Shown piece after piece: positions 48,848 through 58,314 of a DNA stretch of 64,000 bases. The stretch is from Mesorhizobium sp. CAU 1732 (GTDB lineage: Bacteria > Pseudomonadota > Alphaproteobacteria > Rhizobiales > Rhizobiaceae): NCBI RefSeq assembly GCF_039888675.1, contig NZ_JBDQQR010000001.1, forward strand, positions 1,550,001-1,614,000, read 5' to 3'. Made by a program: the position numbers and the translations under genes. The notes below the pieces were generated by a model that was not told where the DNA came from, did not search any database, and saw nothing but the letters and a program-made list of their open reading frames with translations. Within the stretch, counting starts at the first letter, position 1; every line of letters starts with the position of its first letter.

Positions 48848-48987
48848 TTTCGATCCTAGTACGTAAGTATACAATTAGGAAAATAATCCTTGACGGCGTG
48901 ACGGAGCTTTGGTAGTGTCTGGCTATCGTCGGAGAATTGCGCCTGAGGGCGAACTCTTCGGGTTTTCCCAAGCGGATTTCTCATCTC

Positions 48988-49620
48988 ATGACAAAAAGCA
49001 CAGGCAAGCGGCGGCCGATCTCGGCTGCGCAATGGCTGGCCGCGCGTGTCGTTTCGGAAGAGCTGCCCGTGCTCCGTGTAAGGGTCGCGGCGATGCTGGG
49101 CTGCAACGTCAGAACGGTACGTGCACGCGCTGCCAAGGAGGGTTGGAAGCGGCCCGACGACCGGTATTTCAAGATTCGTAGCGTCCACAGCAGACCAGTG
49201 ACGTGCGCGACCGGGGGCAACGAAGGTGAAACTCCGGAGGCAACGGACAATGACGTCCGGGTCGGGGCCATGCCTTGTGTCCAGAACCCTTCGTACCAGC
49301 CTTTGCCGGATATCCGGCAGGACGAAGACCCGGTCGCGGTGCTGGCGCGATGCGCGTCGTTCGTGGCGCGCCGTGTCGAGACCGTGATCGCGCTTGCCGA
49401 CAGCGGTGAGCCGATCGCCAAGACCGAGATCGATACGCTGGCCGCGATGATGCGGATGATGGAGCGCTGGGAGGCGCTCGCGGCGGAACGGGCGAAACAG
49501 GAAAAAGCCACCAATGACGAAGATCTGGCCGCCCTGCTCGGACGCATCAACAATCGCATTGTCGAGCTTGCACAGGACCTTGCAGGACAACTGGTCGCAA
49601 ACCGCGCTGTCGCCTGCTGA
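48988..49620 (+). CDS. GTA small-terminase-like protein (g1 position)
   Basis: A 210-residue protein with an N-terminal helix-turn-helix (about 10-50, ISAAQWLAARVVSEEL and LGCNVRTVRARAAKEGW) and a C-terminal helical region (about 115-205). It lies just before the large terminase, where small terminases (RcGTA g1) occur, and would recognise DNA for packaging. The start is ATG 48988. The 107-bp overlap with the terL frame suggests that one of the two starts is misjudged. Confidence 0.65.
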   Translation: MTKSTGKRRPISAAQWLAARVVSEELPVLRVRVAAMLGCNVRTVRARAAKEGWKRPDDRYFKIRSVHSRPVTCATGGNEGETPEATDNDVRVGAMPCVQNPSYQPLPDIRQDEDPVAVLARCASFVARRVETVIALADSGEPIAKTEIDTLAAMMRMMERWEALAAERAKQEKATNDEDLAALLGRINNRIVELAQDLAGQLVANRAVAC

Positions 49621-50878
49621 CGCGCGGCTGCTGCGGGGGGCGTGGATCAGCGAAGCGCGGCTGTCGCAATATCCGGTCGGGCTGGAGCTTTTCGGTCTTC
49701 CGCCCGTCGACAACTGGCTGGTGATCGGCGGACGCGGCTCGGGCAAGACGCGGCTGGGCGCGGAATGGGTGAACGCTCTGGCGCGCGGCCTGCCGCCCTT
49801 TGCGGGACACAACAGACACATGCGCATCGCGCTGGTGGGGGAGACCCTGGGCGACGTGCGCGAGGTGATGGTGGAGGGGGCGTCAGGAATTGCAGGCTGC
49901 GGCGGTGACGATCGTCCACGATACGAGCCGACGCGGCGCAGGTTGCTCTGGAGCAGCGGCGCGGTGGCGCAGGCGTTTTCCTCGGAAGACCCCGAAAGCC
50001 TTCGCGGGCCCCAGTTCGAGGCTGCCTGGTGCGACGAGCTGGCGAAATGGAAGAACGCCGAAGCCTGCTTCGACATGCTCCAGTTCGGGCTGCGGCTGGG
50101 CGAGCGGCCGCGACAGCTCGTGACCACGACGCCGCGCGCGACGCCGCTGCTCAAGCGGCTGATGAGCGATGACAGTTTTACGCTGACGCGGATGCGGACG
50201 GACGAGAATGCGCAGAACCTCGCAGCCGGGTTCATCGACACGATCCGTGGGCGCTACGCCGGATCGCGGCTCGGCCGGCAGGAACTCGACGGCGAACTGA
50301 TCGAGGATCGCGCCGACGCGCTTTGGACGCGCTCTGGCCTCGAGGCGATGGACGGGGCGCATGGGCAGCTCTCGCGCATCGTCGTCGCTGTGGACCCGCC
50401 GGCGACGTCGCGGCGGAATTCGGATGCGTGCGGCATCGTCGTGGCGGGGCTGGACGGACAGGGCCGCGCTGTCGTGCTGCAGGACGGGACGATTTCAGCG
50501 GCACGGCCGCAGGACTGGGCGGCGCGCGCGATCGCGCTGTTCCACGCACACGAGGCCGACTGCATCGTCGCCGAGGTCAACCAGGGCGGCGAGATGGTCA
50601 CCGCCGTGCTGCGCACCATCGACGCCAGCGTGCCAGTCAGGGCGGTGCGGGCCACGCGGGGCAAATGGCTGCGCGCCGAGCCGGTCGCAGCACTCTATGC
50701 GCAGGGCCGGGTGGTTCATGCGGGCCGTTTCGCCAAGCTCGAGGACGAGATGTGCGATTTCGGTCCTGACGGGCTGTCGGGCGGGCGCTCGCCGGACCGG
50801 GTCGACGCGCTCGTCTGGGCGGTGACGGACCTTCTGCTCGGCCGACAGGATCGGCCGCGAATTCGCAACCTTAGCTGA
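49514..50878 (+). CDS. GTA large terminase (TerL)
   Basis: DNA-packaging motor of the gene transfer agent: ATPase with Walker A GGRGSGKT (72-79) and a C-terminal nuclease domain with AVDPPATSRR, AEVNQGG and SPDRVDALVWAV. The 454-residue length is normal, so the gene looks intact. The reported start (49514) overlaps g1 by 107 bp, and a TTG near 49574 could be the true one. Together with the following genes it shows the standard alphaproteobacterial GTA order. Confidence 0.9.
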   Translation: MTKIWPPCSDASTIALSSLHRTLQDNWSQTALSPADARLLRGAWISEARLSQYPVGLELFGLPPVDNWLVIGGRGSGKTRLGAEWVNALARGLPPFAGHNRHMRIALVGETLGDVREVMVEGASGIAGCGGDDRPRYEPTRRRLLWSSGAVAQAFSSEDPESLRGPQFEAAWCDELAKWKNAEACFDMLQFGLRLGERPRQLVTTTPRATPLLKRLMSDDSFTLTRMRTDENAQNLAAGFIDTIRGRYAGSRLGRQELDGELIEDRADALWTRSGLEAMDGAHGQLSRIVVAVDPPATSRRNSDACGIVVAGLDGQGRAVVLQDGTISAARPQDWAARAIALFHAHEADCIVAEVNQGGEMVTAVLRTIDASVPVRAVRATRGKWLRAEPVAALYAQGRVVHAGRFAKLEDEMCDFGPDGLSGGRSPDRVDALVWAVTDLLLGRQDRPRIRNLS

Positions 50879-50890
50879 ACGGAACGGATC

Positions 50891-52063
50891 ATGGGATGGA
50901 AATGGCCATGGGCGAAGAGCCCGGGCGATGCGGATCTGCGCGTCGAACGCAAGAGTGCCGGCGGCTACGGCTTCGTGGCGCTGCATACGCAAAGCGAGGC
51001 GGCGTGGACGCGGCCGGACTATGCCGCGCTCGCCCGCGAGGGGTTCATGCGCAACCCGGTCGTGCACCGCTCGGTGCGGCTGATTTCGGAAGCGGCGGCG
51101 GCGATGCCGTGGCTGCTCTTCGAGGGCGCGCAGGAGCGCAGCGATCATCCGCTGCTGGCGATGCTCAGGCAGCCGAACCCGCGCGCGGGCGGTGTGGCGT
51201 TTCTCGAGGCGCTGTACGGACATCTCCTGATGTCGGGCAACGCCTATGTCGAACTCGTCGAGGCCGGCGATGCGCGCGAACTGCATCTTCTGAGACCGGA
51301 CAGGGTGGCCGTGGTGGCGGACGGGTCCGGGTGGCCGATGGCGATCGAGCATCGCGAAGGCAGCGCAAAGCGGCGCATCGCGCTCTCCGGTGACGGGGAG
51401 GGCGGGGCGCTGCACCTGACGCTGTTCCATCCGCTGGACGATCACTACGGATTTCCGCCGTTGCAGGCGGCGCTGATGGCGCTCGACATCCACAATGCGG
51501 CCGCGCGCTGGAACAAGGCGCTGCTCGACAATTCGGCACGCCCCTCCGGTGCGCTGGTCTATGCGCCGAAGGAGGGCGGCAACCTCAGCGAAGACCAGTA
51601 TGAGCGGCTCAAGACGGAGCTGGAGGAGGGCTATTCCGGCGCGACGCGGGCCGGTCGTCCGATGCTGCTGGAGGGCGGGCTCGACTGGAAGGCGATGGGC
51701 CTGACGCCCAAGGACATGGATTTCATCGAGGCCAAGAACGCCGCGAGCCGCGACATCGCGCTCGCTTTCGGGGTGCCGCCGATGGTCCTCGGCATTCCCG
51801 GCGACAACACCTACGCGAACTATCAGGAGGCCAACCGCGCCTTCTACCGCATGACAGTCATGCCGCTGGTGACGCGGACGGCGTCCGAACTGTCCGGCTG
51901 GCTCGGACCGCGCTTCGGGCCGGATTTGCGCCTGACCTTCGATGCGGACCAGATCGACGGGCTGGCGATGGAACGCGCGGCGGTCTGGGAGCGGGTCGGC
52001 GCGGCCGATTTCCTGTCGGAAGACGAAAAGCGCGAGGCGGTCGGATACGGCCCCCGCGCATGA
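50891..52063 (+). CDS. GTA portal protein (HK97-type)
   Basis: A 390-residue portal through which DNA enters the head. Motifs such as YAALAREGFMRNPVVHRSV and LGIPGDNTYANYQEANRAFY are typical of phage portal family HK97. It starts 12 bp after TerL and ends with a TGA overlapping a possible start of the next gene. Full length for the family. Confidence 0.92.
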   Translation: MGWKWPWAKSPGDADLRVERKSAGGYGFVALHTQSEAAWTRPDYAALAREGFMRNPVVHRSVRLISEAAAAMPWLLFEGAQERSDHPLLAMLRQPNPRAGGVAFLEALYGHLLMSGNAYVELVEAGDARELHLLRPDRVAVVADGSGWPMAIEHREGSAKRRIALSGDGEGGALHLTLFHPLDDHYGFPPLQAALMALDIHNAAARWNKALLDNSARPSGALVYAPKEGGNLSEDQYERLKTELEEGYSGATRAGRPMLLEGGLDWKAMGLTPKDMDFIEAKNAASRDIALAFGVPPMVLGIPGDNTYANYQEANRAFYRMTVMPLVTRTASELSGWLGPRFGPDLRLTFDADQIDGLAMERAAVWERVGAADFLSEDEKREAVGYGPRA

Positions 52064-52092
52064 CGGCATCCATGACGAGAGGCACGAAGCAG

Positions 52093-52437
52093 ATGAACGA
52101 AGCAGCCTGGCTGTGGGTGGCGAAAGCGGCCGGCGCGGTTGCCGGTTCGGCGATCTCGCTTGCCTACATCCTCCCGGCCGAGAAGCGCGAGGCGGGCATC
52201 CGCTTCGCGATCGGCCTCGTATGCGGATTGGTGTTCGGCGGAACGGCAGGCCTCAAGATCGCGGTCGAACTCGGCATCGAGAATACGCTCGGTCCGTTCG
52301 AACTGGTTCTGATGGGGTCCGCTGCGGCGAGCCTCTGCGCCTGGTGGGCGCTGGGCATGCTGATGCGCGCATTCACGGGAAAATCCGTCGCGAAAACCGA
52401 CAGCGATCACAAGCGGAGCATCACCGATGAGACATGA
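52093..52437 (+). CDS. GTA DUF6107 small membrane protein
   Basis: A 114-residue membrane protein with three hydrophobic segments (about 4-25, 36-58 and 72-96), as in the DUF6107 proteins that lie between portal and protease in rhizobial GTAs. I start at ATG 52093 (GAGAGGCACGAAGCAG upstream); ATG 52060 would give 11 more residues and couple it to the portal stop. It overlaps the protease gene by 11 bp. Function unknown. Confidence 0.8.
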   Translation: MNEAAWLWVAKAAGAVAGSAISLAYILPAEKREAGIRFAIGLVCGLVFGGTAGLKIAVELGIENTLGPFELVLMGSAAASLCAWWALGMLMRAFTGKSVAKTDSDHKRSITDET

Positions 52438-53110
52438 CGGCCCGGTCGCGGGCATCGAGCGAAAATTCGTCGACGCGCAGATCGGCGCCGTCGAGGCGGA
52501 TGGGACGTTTTCCGGTTACGCGAGCCTGTTCGGCAAGGCCGATCTGGCCCGGGACGTGGTGGAGAAGGGCGCGTTCGAAAAAGCGTTGCGCACCAGAGGC
52601 GCGGGCGGCGTGCGCATGCTGTTCCAGCACGATCCCGGCCAGCCGATCGGGGTGTGGACCGAATTGCGGGAGGACGCGCGCGGCCTGTTCGTGCGCGGGC
52701 GTCTCTCACAGGGCGTGGCACGGGCGCGCGAGGTGCGCGAACTGATGCGCGCCGGCGCGCTCGACGGACTTTCGATCGGCTTCCGCACGGTGAAGGCCTC
52801 GAAGGACCGACAAGCCGGCGTGCGGCGCATCGTCGAGGCGGACCTCTGGGAAATCTCGGTCGTGACGTTTCCGATGCTGCCCGGCGCCCGCGTCGACAGC
52901 GTCAAGGGCGCACGCACGCTCCCCTCGGTGAGGGAATTCGAACGGTGGCTGACGCGGGACGCGAAGCTGACCAGAGGGGAAGCCCGCACCGTCATCGCGC
53001 GCGGCTTCTCCGACCTCGTGCGCGAGCGGGACGCCGCGCCTGGAACCCCCGAAAGCCTGGTGGAACGCATCCGCCGGGCAACGCGCATGTTGAAACAAGA
53101 GGAACGCTGA
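52427..53110 (+). CDS. GTA prohead protease (HK97 family)
   Basis: A 227-residue serine protease that trims the capsid during head maturation. The catalytic histidine is in FQHDPGQP (about residue 67) and the serine is in LDGLSIGFRT (about 117). ISVVTFPMLPGA is the usual segment before the C-terminal helical part. It sits directly ahead of the capsid gene with no gap. Confidence 0.92.
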   Translation: MRHDGPVAGIERKFVDAQIGAVEADGTFSGYASLFGKADLARDVVEKGAFEKALRTRGAGGVRMLFQHDPGQPIGVWTELREDARGLFVRGRLSQGVARAREVRELMRAGALDGLSIGFRTVKASKDRQAGVRRIVEADLWEISVVTFPMLPGARVDSVKGARTLPSVREFERWLTRDAKLTRGEARTVIARGFSDLVRERDAAPGTPESLVERIRRATRMLKQEER

Positions 53111-54364
53111 ATGACGATCACACAGACCGCACCCGAGACGAAATCCGACGCCGGCTATTCGGGCCTGTCGGACAGTTTCGACGAGTTCATGACGACCTTC
53201 ACGGATTTCCGCGAGGCAAACGACCAGCGCCTGGCGCAGATGGAACGGCGCATGAGCGCCGACGTGATCACCACGGAAAAGGTCGATCGCATCTCCGACG
53301 CGCTCGACCAGCAGAAGAAGGCGCTGGATACGCTGGTGATCAAGGGCGTTCGCCCGGCACTTGGCCGGACCGCCAAATCCGGCTCGGGCTCGCCGGAACA
53401 CAAGCAGGCGTTCGAGGCCTATGTACGCACCGGCGACGACCGCCTGCTTCGCTCGCTGGAAAGCAAGGCGATGTCCTACGGCTCCGGCCAGGACGGCGGC
53501 TATCTCGTGCCCGACGAGGTCGAGACGGAAATCGGCCGCCGCCTTGCGGTGATCTCGCCGATCCGTTCGATCGCCTCGGTCAGGCAGGTGTCCGGCGCGG
53601 TGCTGAAGAAGCCGTTCATGGTCTTCGGTCCCGCGGTGGGCTGGGTGGCCGAGACGGCCGCGCGTCCGCAGACCAATTCGCCGACGCTGGACGAGATGCA
53701 GTTTCCGACCGCCGAACTCTACGCGATGCCGGCGGCGACCGCATCGCTGCTCGAAGACAGCATCGTCGATCTCGACCAGTGGATCGCATCCGAGGTGGAG
53801 GTCGCGTTTGCGGAACAGGAGGGGGCGGCCTTCGTCAATGGCGACGGAACGGGCAAGCCGCGCGGCCTCCTCGATTACGACCAGGTGAACGAGACGAGCT
53901 GGGTCTGGGACAGGATCGGTTACGTGCCGACCGGTGTGGCCGGTGAACTGCCGGCAACCGCTTCGTCCGACAAGCTGATCGATGCGGTCTATGCGCTCAA
54001 GGCGGGGTATCGCCAGAATGCGAACTGGGTGATGAACCGTAAGACGCAGGCGACGATCCGCAAGCTCAAGGACGCGGACGGAAACTATCTGTGGCAGCCG
54101 CCCGCGACCCCCGGCTCCCGCGCCATGCTGATGGGCTTCGGTCTCGTCGAGGCCGAGGAGATGCCGGATATCGGCGTCGATGCGACGCCGATCGCGTTCG
54201 GCGACTTCCAGCGCGGTTACCTGATCGTCGATCGGGCGGGCGTGCGCGTGCTGCGCGATCCGTATTCCGCCAAGCCGTATGTGCTGTTCTACACGACGAA
54301 GCGCGTGGGCGGCGGCGTCCAGGATTTCGACGCGATCAAGCTCCTGAAGTTCAGCGTGTCCTGA
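53111..54364 (+). CDS. GTA major capsid protein (HK97 fold)
   Basis: A 417-residue HK97-type major capsid protein. The N-terminal coiled-coil scaffold (about 1-100) is followed by the shell domain with SYGSGQDGGYLVPDEVETEI and the E-loop region. The C-terminal part (ILxAxxVGGGVQDFDAIKLL-like ending) is complete. It starts one base after the protease stop and is followed by a strong hairpin. The length suggests a still functional gene. Confidence 0.93.
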   Translation: MTITQTAPETKSDAGYSGLSDSFDEFMTTFTDFREANDQRLAQMERRMSADVITTEKVDRISDALDQQKKALDTLVIKGVRPALGRTAKSGSGSPEHKQAFEAYVRTGDDRLLRSLESKAMSYGSGQDGGYLVPDEVETEIGRRLAVISPIRSIASVRQVSGAVLKKPFMVFGPAVGWVAETAARPQTNSPTLDEMQFPTAELYAMPAATASLLEDSIVDLDQWIASEVEVAFAEQEGAAFVNGDGTGKPRGLLDYDQVNETSWVWDRIGYVPTGVAGELPATASSDKLIDAVYALKAGYRQNANWVMNRKTQATIRKLKDADGNYLWQPPATPGSRAMLMGFGLVEAEEMPDIGVDATPIAFGDFQRGYLIVDRAGVRVLRDPYSAKPYVLFYTTKRVGGGVQDFDAIKLLKFSVS

Positions 54365-54470: not shown

Positions 54471-55040
54471 ATGGCGCTTTTCAGAACTGTCGAGCCGGAG
54501 CTCGAACCGGTCACGCTGACCGAGATCAAGCAGCAACTGCGCGTCGCACACGATAGCGAGGACGTGCTTCTGCTGGGGCTGATCCGGGCGGCGCGAGAAG
54601 AGGTGGAGGCGTCCTGCGGGCTCGCTTTGATGAACCAGTCCTGGCGCTTGACCATCGACCGCATGCCCGCGTCGGGCCGTGTCCTGCTGCACCGTCACCC
54701 GGTGCGCGAAATCCCGTCCGTCACCGTCTATGGCGCCGACGGGGAGGGAGCGCTGGTCGATCCGTCGGCCTTGGAGCTCGATGCCAAGTCCCGTCCGGCG
54801 CGCCTGCACGTCACGCAGCCGCTTGCGCCGTCCAAGGTGATGAACGGGATCGAGATCGATTTCACGGCGGGCTTCGGCGAGGCGGGAACCGACGTGCCCG
54901 ACCTTCTGAAGCGCGCGATCCACACATTGGTGGCGCACTGGTACGAGTTCAGAGCGAGCTTCGACCACAGGCAGCAGCCGATGTCGCTGCCGCCGATCTA
55001 TGAACGGCTGGTGGCACCCTACCGCATGCGGAGGCTGTGA
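54471..55040 (+). CDS. GTA head-tail connector (g6)
   Basis: A 189-residue connector of the phage gp6-like/phiE125 gp8 family. The helical start has LTEIKQQLRVAHDSEDVLLLGLIRAAREEVEASCG, and the end has LLKRAIHTLVAHWYEFRAS. It joins portal and head-closure protein. The 3' end overlaps g7 by 4 bp. Full length. Confidence 0.88.
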   Translation: MALFRTVEPELEPVTLTEIKQQLRVAHDSEDVLLLGLIRAAREEVEASCGLALMNQSWRLTIDRMPASGRVLLHRHPVREIPSVTVYGADGEGALVDPSALELDAKSRPARLHVTQPLAPSKVMNGIEIDFTAGFGEAGTDVPDLLKRAIHTLVAHWYEFRASFDHRQQPMSLPPIYERLVAPYRMRRL

Positions 55041-55375
55041 TGCGGGCGGAGTTCATCGATCCCGGTTCGCTTCGCCACGAGGTCGCTGTCGAAGCAGCAG
55101 CGCTCATACCAGACGGAGCGGGTGGACATGCCGAAAGCTGGTCCGAGATCGCGACCCTTTTCGCGCGCATCGAGCCCGTCAGCGCGCAAGCGCGGTATGG
55201 CGCGGACCAGACGCTCGAAACCATGACGCACCGGATTACGCTGCGGTTTCGAGCGGATATCGCAAGCGGCATGAGGCTGCGGAAATCTTCACGATTGTTC
55301 GAGATTCTGACCGTCCACGATCCCGACGAGACCGGTCGCTATCTCATATGCCGGGCGCGGGAGGACGGACGTTGA
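55037..55375 (+). CDS. GTA head-closure/head-tail adaptor (g7)
   Basis: A 112-residue head-tail adaptor with the beta-rich core LRHEVAVEAAALIPDGAGGHAESWSEIATLFARIEP and a final DETGRYLICRAREDGR, as in phage head-tail adaptor family proteins. It starts within the g6 stop and ends within the start of the next small gene. Confidence 0.85.
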   Translation: MMRAEFIDPGSLRHEVAVEAAALIPDGAGGHAESWSEIATLFARIEPVSAQARYGADQTLETMTHRITLRFRADIASGMRLRKSSRLFEILTVHDPDETGRYLICRAREDGR

Positions 55376-55554
55376 AAGTGACCATGAGATTGACGCTGCA
55401 GGGCCTGCAGCGCGCCTTGCGCCTGAAAGCGCATGAGATGGCGGACGAGATCGAAGCGGGTTATCGTCGCCCCCGTCCGTCACGCACGGAAGACGTCTCC
55501 ACGGGGGTGGAGTTGACGAGGAGAGGGGTGGACGATGGCGTCGGCGGCGATTGA
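55372..55554 (+). CDS. Small protein between GTA g7 and g8
   Basis: A 60-residue basic protein (MRLTLQGLQRALRLKAHEMA and following) of the short kind that appears between adaptor and DUF3168 genes in rhizobial GTAs. A TTG at 55372 overlaps the g7 stop (GAGGACGGACG upstream); an ATG at 55384 is the alternative. The end overlaps the DUF3168 start by 20 bp. Function unknown. Confidence 0.55.
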   Translation: MKVTMRLTLQGLQRALRLKAHEMADEIEAGYRRPRPSRTEDVSTGVELTRRGVDDGVGGD

Positions 55555-56001: not shown

Positions 56002-56334
56002 GTGGCAGCACAGAAGGGCAAGGATTTGCTGTTGAAGATCGACAGCAATGGCGCGGGCAGTTTCGTGACCGTGGCCGGGCTGCGCACGAAGCGGCTGGCG
56101 TTCAACAGCGAGACGGTCGACGTGACCGACGCGGATTCGACCGGGCGGTGGCGCGAGCTTCTGTCGGGCAGCGGCGTGCAGCGTGCTCGTCCGGCGGGCG
56201 GTCCGACGTCGCGCAGGCGCGGTTCATTAGCGCGCATATGGAGCACTGGACGCCGGGTTCCCCGTATTTTGCTGCGGCGGAAAATCCGGTGTCGCCGGTC
56301 TATGGCGGGCGCATGGTGTCGCCGTCGCGCCTGA
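56002..56334 (+). pseudogene. GTA major tail protein (g9), truncated by deletion
   Basis: A GTG start at 56002 behind AGGAGGCTCACT opens a TP901-1-type major tail protein (AAQKGKDLLLKIDSNGAGSF, then FNSETVDVTDADSTGRWRELL). Similarity holds to about residue 62 (GVQRA, near 56187). After that the sequence is out of frame with the family and instead matches, in another frame, the C-terminal half of the GTA host-specificity protein. The frame stops at 56334 as a 110-residue chimera. The tail tube protein is therefore lost. Confidence 0.85.
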
Positions 56335-58094
56335 CGCTCTGGGCCTGGGATGCGAGGCCGTTTCCAGCCTATCCGGCGCGGCACGATCTTTGGCGCGACA
56401 GCGGCAACTGGCATCGGGGCCATTGGCTGAACGGGCGGCTCTCCTCCGCGACGGTCGGCGATCTCATTGCGGCAATCCTTCGGGACCATGGGCTTGAGGA
56501 CTTCGATACGCGGTTCGTCGGCGGCAGTGTCAGCGGATATGTGATCGGTGCGCCGACCACGGCGCGGGCCGCGCTGGAACCGCTGGCGGGCCTTTGCGGG
56601 ATTTCGGTTCGCGACGATGCCGGGCGATTGACCTTTCGCGACGAGGCAACCGCGCTCGGCGGGACGGTCGAGATCGACGATATCGTCGTCGAGGACGCAA
56701 TCGCCACGCTCGAGAAGACCCGCGCGCCGGACGGCGATCTCCCGCGCGAGGCCGAACTGGCCTATGCCGATCCGTTTCTGGACTACCAATCCGCCGTCGC
56801 GCGCATCGCGCTTCCCCGCGCAAATACGGGACGGACGCACAGGCTGGTCTTTCCCGGCTATCTGGAGGAGGGCGCTGCTCTCGCCCTGCTTGACGATTGG
56901 GTGCAGAGGATGTGGGCAGGGCGGGATGGCGTCAGCTTCTCGGTGCCGGCAACCGCCATCGACATCACGCCGGGCGCGCGCATCTCCTTGCCGGAAGGCG
57001 GGCAGGCGGTCGATTATCAGGTCACGAACGTGGATATCGGCCTGAGCCGGCGGGTCAGCGCACGGCGTGTTCTGACGGGTGTGCCGAAACCGTGGAGGCT
57101 CGGCGCCAGTCCTGCCGTTCCAGGCGCGCCGGTGATTGCCGGAATGCCTCACGCTCTGCTTCTCGACCTGCCGGCGATGCCCGGATCGGGGGTGGCGGAA
57201 GACCAGTTCAGACTTGCAGCCTATGCAAAGCCGTGGCGCAGCCAGGCCGTTTATGTCTCTGCGGAGGAAGAGGGTTTTATGCTCGCCGGCACCGCATCGC
57301 GGCAGGCGACGCTCGGGCATCTGGCGGAGGCGATCGAGGGAGGGCCGGAGGGGCGGGTCGACAAAGCGGGATCGGTGGTCGTCGAACTCTATGGCGGATC
57401 GCTGTCGAGCGTTTCCGAGATGCAGTTCATGAACGGTGCCAACGCTGCCGCGATCCGATCCGGCGATGGCGGCTGGGAGGTTCTGCAGTTCGCGGACGCC
57501 GAGGAAGTCGCGCCGTCGCGGTGGCGGCTGACGACGCTGCTGCGCGGCCAGTGCGGCACCGCTGATGCCGCGATGACGGGTGCTGCGGCAGGCGCGCCGT
57601 TCGTGCTGCTGAACGAGGCGGTGGCGAGGGCGGGGCTGAGGCCGGAGCAGGCGGGACTGCTCCTGAACTGGCGGATCGGTCCTGTCGGGCATGAGTTCGG
57701 TGGCGAGACGTTCGCCGCATTACAGGCCATCGGGGGCGTTCGCGCCAGACTGCCGTTGTCGCCGGTTCACCTGCGTGTGGCGCGGCGTGCGGGAGGCGAC
57801 TCCGCGATATCCTGGATACGGCGTGGCCGGATCGACGCGGATAGCTGGCTCGCCGATGACATCCCGCTCGGTGAAGAAAGCGAGCGGTATCGCGTCGAGG
57901 TGGCGGCGGCGGGCGGCGCGGTCGTGAAAACGGTCGAGGTGGCGGTACCCGGCTGGGTCTATCCGCGTGCCGAGATGGTCGCCGACCTCCCGCCCGGCAC
58001 CACGCAACTGGACATCACCGTGCGGCAGATCAGTGCCACGATCGGCGCAGGCCTTTCCGTGCGTGGACGCCTCCCGATCACCCTTCCTGAATGA
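56188..58094 (+). pseudogene. GTA host-specificity protein (g15), N-terminal half deleted
   Basis: From about 56188 to the stop at 58092-58094 the sequence encodes the C-terminal half of the long GTA protein with a GTA TIM-barrel and phage-tail_3-like regions: ARFISAHMEHWTPGSPYFAA, then VSPVYGGRMVSPSRLTLWAW and the C-terminal FnIII-like part (WIRRGRIDADSWLADD). About 630 codons remain of a protein usually over 1,200. The first in-frame ATG is at 56238 without a ribosome site. It joins directly to the g9 remnant, so it is not expressed as a normal protein. Confidence 0.83.
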
Positions 58095-58107: not shown

Positions 58108-58314
58108 ATGGACATGGAAAAGCCCTGGTACTTCTCGCGGACGATCTGGGCATCGCTGGTGGTGATCCTCGCGACGCTTGCGGGCGGCTTCGGCCTCGCG
58201 ATCGACGATGTGGACATGCAGGCCACGACGGACGCGATCCTGCAGGCGGTGACGGCGTTGGCCGCACTCATCGCGATCCTGGGCCGGCTTCTGGCGCGAT
58301 CGAGGATCGGCTGA
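58108..58314 (+). CDS. Holin-like small membrane protein
   Basis: A 68-residue protein with two membrane helices (about 9-28 and 42-63) and the start MDMEKPWYFSRTIWASLVVI. This looks like the phage holin-type proteins that follow tail genes in rhizobial prophages and GTAs. The ATG follows GGAGATGAACG. It comes 13 bp after g15 and closes the GTA region. It might still work if transcribed. Confidence 0.7.
   Translation: MDMEKPWYFSRTIWASLVVILATLAGGFGLAIDDVDMQATTDAILQAVTALAALIAILGRLLARSRIG

What the first reader, a model, noticed from the sequence alone, without database searches (positions are those of the whole stretch)
56002..58094. Deletion scar that fuses the GTA major tail gene to the second half of the host-specificity gene
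The tail tube protein reads correctly for about 62 codons, then the sequence switches, near 56188-56205 and out of frame, to the C-terminal half of the g15 protein. In known alphaproteobacterial GTA clusters g10-g14 (chaperone, tape measure, DUF2460, DUF2163, NlpC/P60) lie between; all are absent. The head genes, from terminase to DUF3168, are all full length. This looks like one internal deletion that removed the tail while the packaging and capsid genes still look intact. Either it is recent or the head genes are under some selection, for example for capsid-like DNA packaging.
Basis: partly seen in the sequence, partly recalled or inferred. Interest (0 to 1): 0.75.

Follow-up and report, generated by a model that had tools for sequence, protein, structure and literature searches.

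The report
Broken gene transfer agent, tail lost
A bacterium's virus-like DNA-transfer machine has lost its tail genes through one clean, apparently recent deletion, and relatives in the same family have lost parts of theirs repeatedly, several at one identical spot that nothing yet explains.

Summary
The scar is real. At 56186/56187 the GTA major tail gene (g9, 62 codons left of about 135) is joined, out of frame, to g15 from residue 672 on, with about 1 bp shared. The 7 other held genomes of the genus have 5283-5407 nt here, against about 30 in the window. No g11-g14 match exists in the genome; all 7 congeners match. g2-g8 are full length.

Best reading: a recent inactivating deletion. Head genes and the orphaned g15 remnant are equally open, with rates like those of congeners. 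Selection for a head-only role is not shown, nor excluded.

Outside the window: G169, another genus, has an independent g9::g15 deletion that breaks g15 within about one codon of the same point. Seven of 394 family genomes (6 genera) carry one identical in-frame fusion of terminase, cut after Walker B, to g15 residue 642. They do not form a clade, and at least six changes are needed on the g15 tree. Congeners with separate genes exist in 4 of the 6 genera. DNA repeats do not explain the shared joint.

The parts
48937..49620 (+). candidate g1 (small terminase position)
   Evidence: tblastn matches at the corresponding place in 4 of 7 congeners (L037, L038, L039, L042; none in L036, L040, L041); no Pfam or NCBIfam match; the role is recalled, not shown
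49514..50878 (+). g2 large terminase, full length
   Evidence: Pfam Terminase_6N and 6C; PHROG 979; matches in 7 of 7 congeners, in two pieces in L037 and L040
50891..52063 (+). g3 portal, full length
   Evidence: Pfam Phage_portal
52060..52437 (+). g3.5 small conserved protein
   Evidence: 63-71% identical in 7 congeners; no NCBIfam match
52427..53110 (+). g4 prohead protease, full length
   Evidence: Pfam Peptidase_S78
53111..54364 (+). g5 major capsid protein, full length
   Evidence: Pfam Phage_capsid
54471..55040 (+). g6 head-tail connector
   Evidence: Pfam Phage_connect_1, PHROG 442
55037..55375 (+). g7 head closure protein
   Evidence: Pfam Phage_HCP
   Evidence: Pfam Tail_completion_gp17
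56002..56186 (+). 5' part of g9, major tail protein, 62 of about 135 codons
   Evidence: Pfam Phage_tail_2 residues 3-62; 82-89% identical in 7 congeners
56186..56187 (+). deletion junction g9::g15, out of frame, about 1 bp shared
   Evidence: comparison with congeners
56187..58094 (+). 3' half of g15 (megatron), residues 672 to end, open frame, cut off from its own start
   Evidence: tblastn with the g15 of G006: 672-1297 of 1303; Pfam and PHROG
58108..58314 (+). small holin-like protein following g15
   Evidence: PHROG 34682 holin; same position in 7 of 7 congeners

Best explanation
This is the head-tail cluster of an RcGTA-like gene transfer agent, inactivated in one step by a deletion of about 5.3 kb. 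Two sites with about 1 bp in common were joined. The tail tube is cut after residue 62; five whole genes (g10-g14: chaperone, tape measure, distal tail, hub, peptidase) are gone; so are the penetration, adhesin-like and most of the peripheral domains of the megatron. Shown: the joint, the missing genes, open head genes and an equally open g15 remnant. Inferred: the event is recent on the scale of species divergence, no working particle is made, and if the operon is still switched on it would make tailless heads at most. The head genes are intact because too little time has passed, not because a head-only function is demonstrated.
For: 7 of 7 congeners have 5283-5407 nt where the window has about 30. 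The own genome lacks g11-g14 while 7 of 7 congeners match. No stop or frameshift in 2050 head codons or 625 g15 codons; with an assumed indel/substitution ratio of 0.03-0.1 (recalled, not measured) this bounds neutral divergence since the deletion at 0.3-0.65% for both together, or 1.3-2.9% from g15 alone (95%). Head dN/dS of the window genome with its 7 congeners is 0.13-0.28 (other congener pairs 0.08-0.32); g15C/head dN ratio 1.77-2.21 (other congener pairs 1.89-2.48, and 11 for the very close pair G002/G005), so g15 is not accelerated. RcGTA without g14 gave empty heads without tails (PMC7296036, passage). In one model GTA-negative cells can invade if they still take up GTA DNA, since they pay no lysis cost (PMC6209664, passages). 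Other broken clusters are frequent in the family.
Against: No strain of the same species was available, so the age is a bound, not a date, and it assumes that the g15 remnant evolves neutrally. In G169, the independent g9::g15 deletion, head genes are full and open while the g15 remnant has at least two frameshifts; if those fell at random the chance is about 0.06 (my arithmetic, 632 of 2682 codons squared), a weak hint of head retention. dS between congeners is high, so the rate tests are coarse. The comparison clusters are not all perfect: 3 of 7 congeners (G001, G003, G005) show a stop or frameshift in some gene and g15C of G007 matches only to residue 506.
Confidence: 0.85

Rival explanations
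1. The head and packaging genes are kept by selection for a tail-independent role, such as DNA-packing capsids or lysis-linked release.
For: g2-g8 all open in the window and also in G169, where the g15 remnant has frameshifted.
Against: In the window the g15 remnant is just as open; no excess constraint on head genes; RcGTA without g14 gave empty tailless heads, so packed tailless heads are not expected.
Confidence: 0.08
2. Assembly artefact: the segment is present in the cell but was collapsed or dropped.
For: Reads could not be inspected.
Against: The junction rests on about 1 bp of shared sequence; the contig is 3.6 Mb; g11-g14 are nowhere else in the assembly; an analogous junction exists in G169.
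Confidence: 0.04
3. The g15 C-terminal half is itself retained as a useful protein (compatible with the deletion being recent); in some relatives it is given a start by fusion to terminase, and in the window it may be made by re-initiation near the end of the truncated g9 frame.
For: All 7 same-site terminase::g15 fusions are open over 799-836 codons from a methionine; g15C dN/dS between fused G056, G163, G396 and their congeners is 0.11-0.25.
Against: Fused genomes are tree tips, mostly next to unfused ones, so low dN/dS may date from before the fusion; for fused G015 against two other genera it is 0.38-0.43 (intact pair there 0.36); the window remnant is out of frame with g9; the G169 remnant is frameshifted; the survey was queried with g15C and so favours retention; the model of the fusion was too poor to judge.
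Confidence: 0.1

Closest known systems
RcGTA-like head-tail clusters of Alphaproteobacteria (Rhodobacter capsulatus GTA)
   Same: Protein families of g2-g9 and g15, in the RcGTA order as I recall it; g15 remnant matches the Pfam domain named after RcGTA megatron (Rcc01698_C).
   Different: g10-g14, the end of g9 and the first half of g15 are deleted; the cluster cannot make a tail.
RcGTA g14 deletion mutant (PMC7296036, passages seen)
   Same: Laboratory loss of a tail gene gave empty heads without tails: the phenotype predicted here.
   Different: Engineered loss of a single gene; here a natural loss of five whole genes and parts of two.
GTA clusters of varying completeness in Rhizobiales (PMC9836097, passages seen; PMC6821227, one table row seen)
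   Same: PMC9836097 says the set is conserved to varying degrees in about half of the members of Rhizobiales, Sphingomonadales and Caulobacterales.
   Different: The passages I saw describe neither this junction nor a recurrent same-site terminase::g15 fusion.
Tailless phage particle release in Lactococcus lactis (PMC8752148, search listing and start of abstract only)
   Same: Phage-derived heads without tails.
   Different: Not a GTA; no particle has been seen here.

Membership tests
RcGTA-like gene transfer agent | Head and packaging module g2-g8 in the RcGTA order (order recalled) | tested here: met
RcGTA-like gene transfer agent | Tail module g9-g15 complete | tested here: not met
   g9 and g15 truncated, g10-g14 absent at the locus; g11-g14 absent genome-wide (control)
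RcGTA-like gene transfer agent | Particles that carry host DNA to recipients | not testable with these tools
   needs culture and microscopy
RcGTA-like gene transfer agent | Same cluster present whole in close relatives (descent) | tested here: met
   g2-g15 each matched over at least 85% in 7 of 7 congeners; no stop or frameshift flagged in 4 (G002, G004, G006, G007), some in G001, G003 and G005
Active prophage | Integrase, replication and lysis genes around the head genes | not tested
   the flanks were not annotated in full; only the holin-like gene and the next response regulator were scored
Tail-independent capsid carrier | Head genes under stronger constraint than the tail remnant after tail loss | tested here: inconclusive
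   no difference in the window; weak hint in G169

The most novel reading that the evidence does not exclude
GTA clusters in this bacterial family are removed by a site-specific process, or converge on a selected chimera: 7 of 394 genomes in 6 genera carry the same in-frame joint of terminase, cut right after its Walker B DE, to megatron residue 642. At least six changes are needed on the g15 tree, read as six separate origins, although 20 clusters that hold both sites share only 3-8 bp of exact sequence there and each has thousands of equal or better repeat pairs. The window and G169 share a second g15 breakpoint within about one codon (residue 671-672). A targeted nuclease cutting both look-alike sites followed by end joining, or selection for a terminase-megatron chimera that blocks GTA production or uptake, are both open.
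Probability: 0.25. Interest if true: 0.8.

Novelty: new member of a known kind. Interest (0 to 1): 0.45.

Why it matters
Whether alphaproteobacterial GTAs are kept by selection or keep being lost is an open argument. This window gives a clean loss with a bound on its age: packaging genes intact, tail gone in one step. Together with the losses found in relatives it makes GTA loss countable. The recurrent same-site terminase::g15 fusion, if not explained by selection on the product, would point to an unknown targeted deletion process.

Tried and rejected
Assembly collapse: judged unlikely (about 1 bp shared at the joint; absence of g11-g14 in the whole assembly; analogous natural deletion in G169).

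Single origin and spread of the terminase::g15 fusion: rejected by the g15C trees and an AU test (p 4.2e-72; 6 fused against 18 other rows, G011 left out for its long branch). Against this: the terminase-part tree forces only 3 changes; trees were quick searches; changes are counted as gains or losses alike. An AU test on the 52-row tree was started and not finished.

Import of the fusion by recombination through conserved blocks: disfavoured for G056 (both sides of the joint look genus-specific) and G163 (g15 side); not settled for the other five.

Repeat-mediated deletion as the cause of the shared joint: 20 clusters holding both sites, exact run 3-8 bp, 8-13 of 18 bases matching, and 3701 to 2.3 million pairs with an equal or longer run. 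Rejected as sufficient.

Selection on g15C after fusion: looked for with fused G109 and G187 and unfused G247. G247 is closer to G109 (g15C dS 0.36) than G187 is (0.48), so the low g15C dN/dS (0.14) cannot be dated after the fusion. The terminase part in this genus has dN/dS 0.47-0.80, in the unfused G247 comparisons too. My early idea of a domesticated fusion was dropped.

Structure of the fusion: AlphaFold2 on 7 sequences gave mean pLDDT 47, uninformative; no fold search was run.

Naming the organism: plasmid searches did not name it; the family contains 1.1-2 Mb genomes, which from recall suggests Rhizobiaceae. IMG/VR gave no near-identical copy: best capsid 76% (best 80 of 153 kept), best g15 40%. 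The fusion pattern in IMG/VR gave 5 matches; none is a terminase::g15 fusion.

Full report
OBSERVATION. The window holds an RcGTA-like head-tail cluster on the + strand. Pfam and PHROG name terminase, portal, protease, capsid, connector, head closure and tail terminator, all with full-length frames. The major tail protein matches its family over residues 3-62 only; the next open frame matches the end of the GTA_TIM domain, Phage-tail_3 and Rcc01698_C, starting at position 691 of 1309 of the PHROG profile. Gene numbers g1-g15 and the RcGTA order are recalled, except g13, g14 and g15, which PMC7296036 names in the passages seen.

JUNCTION. The seven other held genomes of the genus (asked for 200 and searched 8, the own genome included) were fetched. 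In each the tail protein is 135-137 residues, and 5283-5407 nt separate its residue 62 from the retained part of g15; here it is about 30 nt. Set against the congeners, the tail gene runs to CAGCGTGC (56186) and g15 begins with TCGTCC (56187); one base is shared and the frame changes. g15 keeps residues 672 on. In the RcGTA structure paper (passages seen) megatron has iris/penetration 1-46, adhesin-like 47-229, peripheral 230-744, central 745-984 and fibre-binding 985-1304 domains. So, by RcGTA numbering, the pore and adhesin domains and most of the peripheral domain are lost.

STATE OF THE CONGENERS. All of g2-g15 are matched over at least 85% in the 7 congeners. Four show no stop or frameshift by tblastn (G002, G004, G006, G007). 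G001 (g2, g5, g11), G003 (g4, g11) and G005 (g2) show one or more, which may be real decay, draft errors or match ends; I did not check. The g15 C part of G007 matches only to query residue 506.

MISSING GENES. A query of the g11-g14 proteins of congener G006 finds nothing in the window's own genome at E<=1 and matches in 7 of 7 congeners. GTA_TIM occurs once, as the remnant. g10 was tested at the locus only. The genome does carry another, phage-like set near 3.44-3.46 Mb with capsid (43% identical), portal, major tail protein, tail terminator, tape measure, distal tail and fibre genes; help from its tail is conceivable and untested.

AGE AND SELECTION. No stop or frameshift lies in 2050 head codons (8 frames, g3.5 included) or 625 g15 codons. 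If both evolved neutrally, 95% bounds on neutral divergence since the deletion are 0.3-0.65% (both) and 1.3-2.9% (g15 alone), under an assumed indel/substitution ratio of 0.1 or 0.03. NG86 estimates for all pairs of 11 genomes (8 of the genus, G093, G082, G169; g3.5 left out) show nothing special for the window genome. Head dN/dS is 0.13-0.28 with its seven congeners (other congener pairs 0.08-0.32). g15C dN/dS is 0.20-0.41 (others 0.16-0.49). The g15C/head dN ratio is 1.77-2.21, against 1.89-2.48 for other congener pairs, apart from the very close pair G002/G005 at 11. The window's terminal g15C branch (0.38) lies within the range of congeners (0.10-0.64). Recency therefore suffices; selection on the head is not shown. 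Counter-hint: in G169 a separate g9::g15 deletion has left g2-g8 full and open while the g15 remnant is frameshifted.

EXPECTED EFFECT. With tape measure, distal tail, hub and peptidase gone and the tail tube cut, DNA delivery by this particle is not expected (inference). In RcGTA, loss of g14 alone gave empty heads without tails. In a published model GTA-negative cells invaded if they still took up GTA DNA, because they paid no lysis cost; if they could not take it up their advantage was gradually lost (PMC6209664, passages).

CONTEXT IN THE FAMILY. g15C occurs in 115 of 151 family genomes at E<=1e-20 and the capsid in 108 of 151 at E<=1e-60. From these listings I picked, by eye and not exhaustively, 17 genomes with a short or odd g15 frame or no capsid and fetched them with 3 controls; G015 had been fetched before. 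Of these 18: five carry a terminase::g15 joint at the same place (G011, G015, G056, G109, G163); G123 has another terminase::g15 joint; G169 has g9::g15; G151 has several gaps; G161 joins capsid to g14; G053 lacks g11-g14 and the start of g15, with about 4 kb of other sequence between; G051, G101 and G147 have a frameshifted g15; G064 and G159 carry an insert of 3.4-3.6 kb in g15; G100, G156 and G112 end at a contig edge and stay unresolved. Not fetched although odd: G058, G124, G127, G154, G167. One search also shows shortened, different arrangements in G233 and G330, the genus of G396; not followed.

RECURRENT JOINT. The fusions read ..GPQFDAAWCDEL-GCPAVDKG.. or close variants: terminase up to its Walker B DE, then g15 from residue 640-642, in frame, 799-836 codons from a methionine. 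The motif name is recalled. A degenerate DNA pattern finds it in 7 of 394 family genomes from 6 genera, with no match to the reversed control pattern; in 0 of 397 order-level genomes, 376 of them from other families by my count; and in 1 of 20 genomes of G396's genus. All 7 were confirmed as fusions. The pattern would miss fusions with an altered motif. Congeners with separate terminase and g15 exist in four of the six genera (G153 and G217, there on separate contigs; G071 and G226; G171 and G286; G247); G011 and G015 had no congener in the sample.

Flanks: both sides match between G163 and G071/G226 and between G396 and G171. G109 and G187 match G247 well downstream but over only about 0.1 kb upstream. 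G056 matches G153 and G217 downstream, and G217 over 0.55 kb upstream. In the g15C tree fused copies sit with their own genus where one was available: 6 changes forced by supported branches in 46 rows, 7 at minimum in 52 rows; a single clade is rejected (p 4.2e-72, 24 rows). The terminase tree forces 3. Homology at the joint is weak in 20 clusters that hold both sites. DNA next to the joint is genus-specific on both sides in G056, and on the g15 side in G163. I have no mechanism that I can show. The window's own deletion is not this fusion, but it and G169 break g15 within about one codon of each other.

LITERATURE. Searches (PMC open-licence library) listed no paper that from its title or start of abstract reports such fusions. 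I saw passages of PMC9836097, PMC7296036 and PMC6209664 and one table row of PMC6821227, none in full.

VERDICT. The scar is confirmed; it is a recent-looking, natural, loss-of-function deletion of a known element. On its own it is modestly interesting. The recurrent same-site loss found around it is the part worth following.

Noticed in passing
L043, L139, L140, L142, L144, L166, L167: Identical in-frame terminase(Walker B)::g15(642) fusion in 7 genomes of 6 genera, not one clade, at least six changes on the g15 tree, not explained by DNA repeats.
   Followed up: partly
L154:8747-11006: Independent g9(123)::g15(671) deletion in genus g76, head genes open, g15 remnant frameshifted; g15 breakpoint within about one codon of the window's.
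   Followed up: partly
L141:8346-11489: A different in-frame terminase(216)::g15(454) fusion in G123.
   Followed up: no
window 55384-55554: Small open frame of about 56 codons between g7 and g8; a frame with a similar start (LTL..L.R.L) is seen at the same place in the congeners and in G093, G082 and G126; no Pfam or NCBIfam match.
   Followed up: partly
L200:2507-18181 (own chromosome near 3.44-3.46 Mb): A second, phage-like gene set with its own capsid, portal and tail genes in the same genome.
   Followed up: partly
L150, L151 (G064, G159, same genus): Insert of 3.4-3.6 kb inside g15 after residue 721 in both genomes.
   Followed up: no
G233:C11:84416-86560 and G330:C9:355309-358280 (not fetched): Shortened terminase/g15 arrangements with other joints in the genus of G396.
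   Followed up: no
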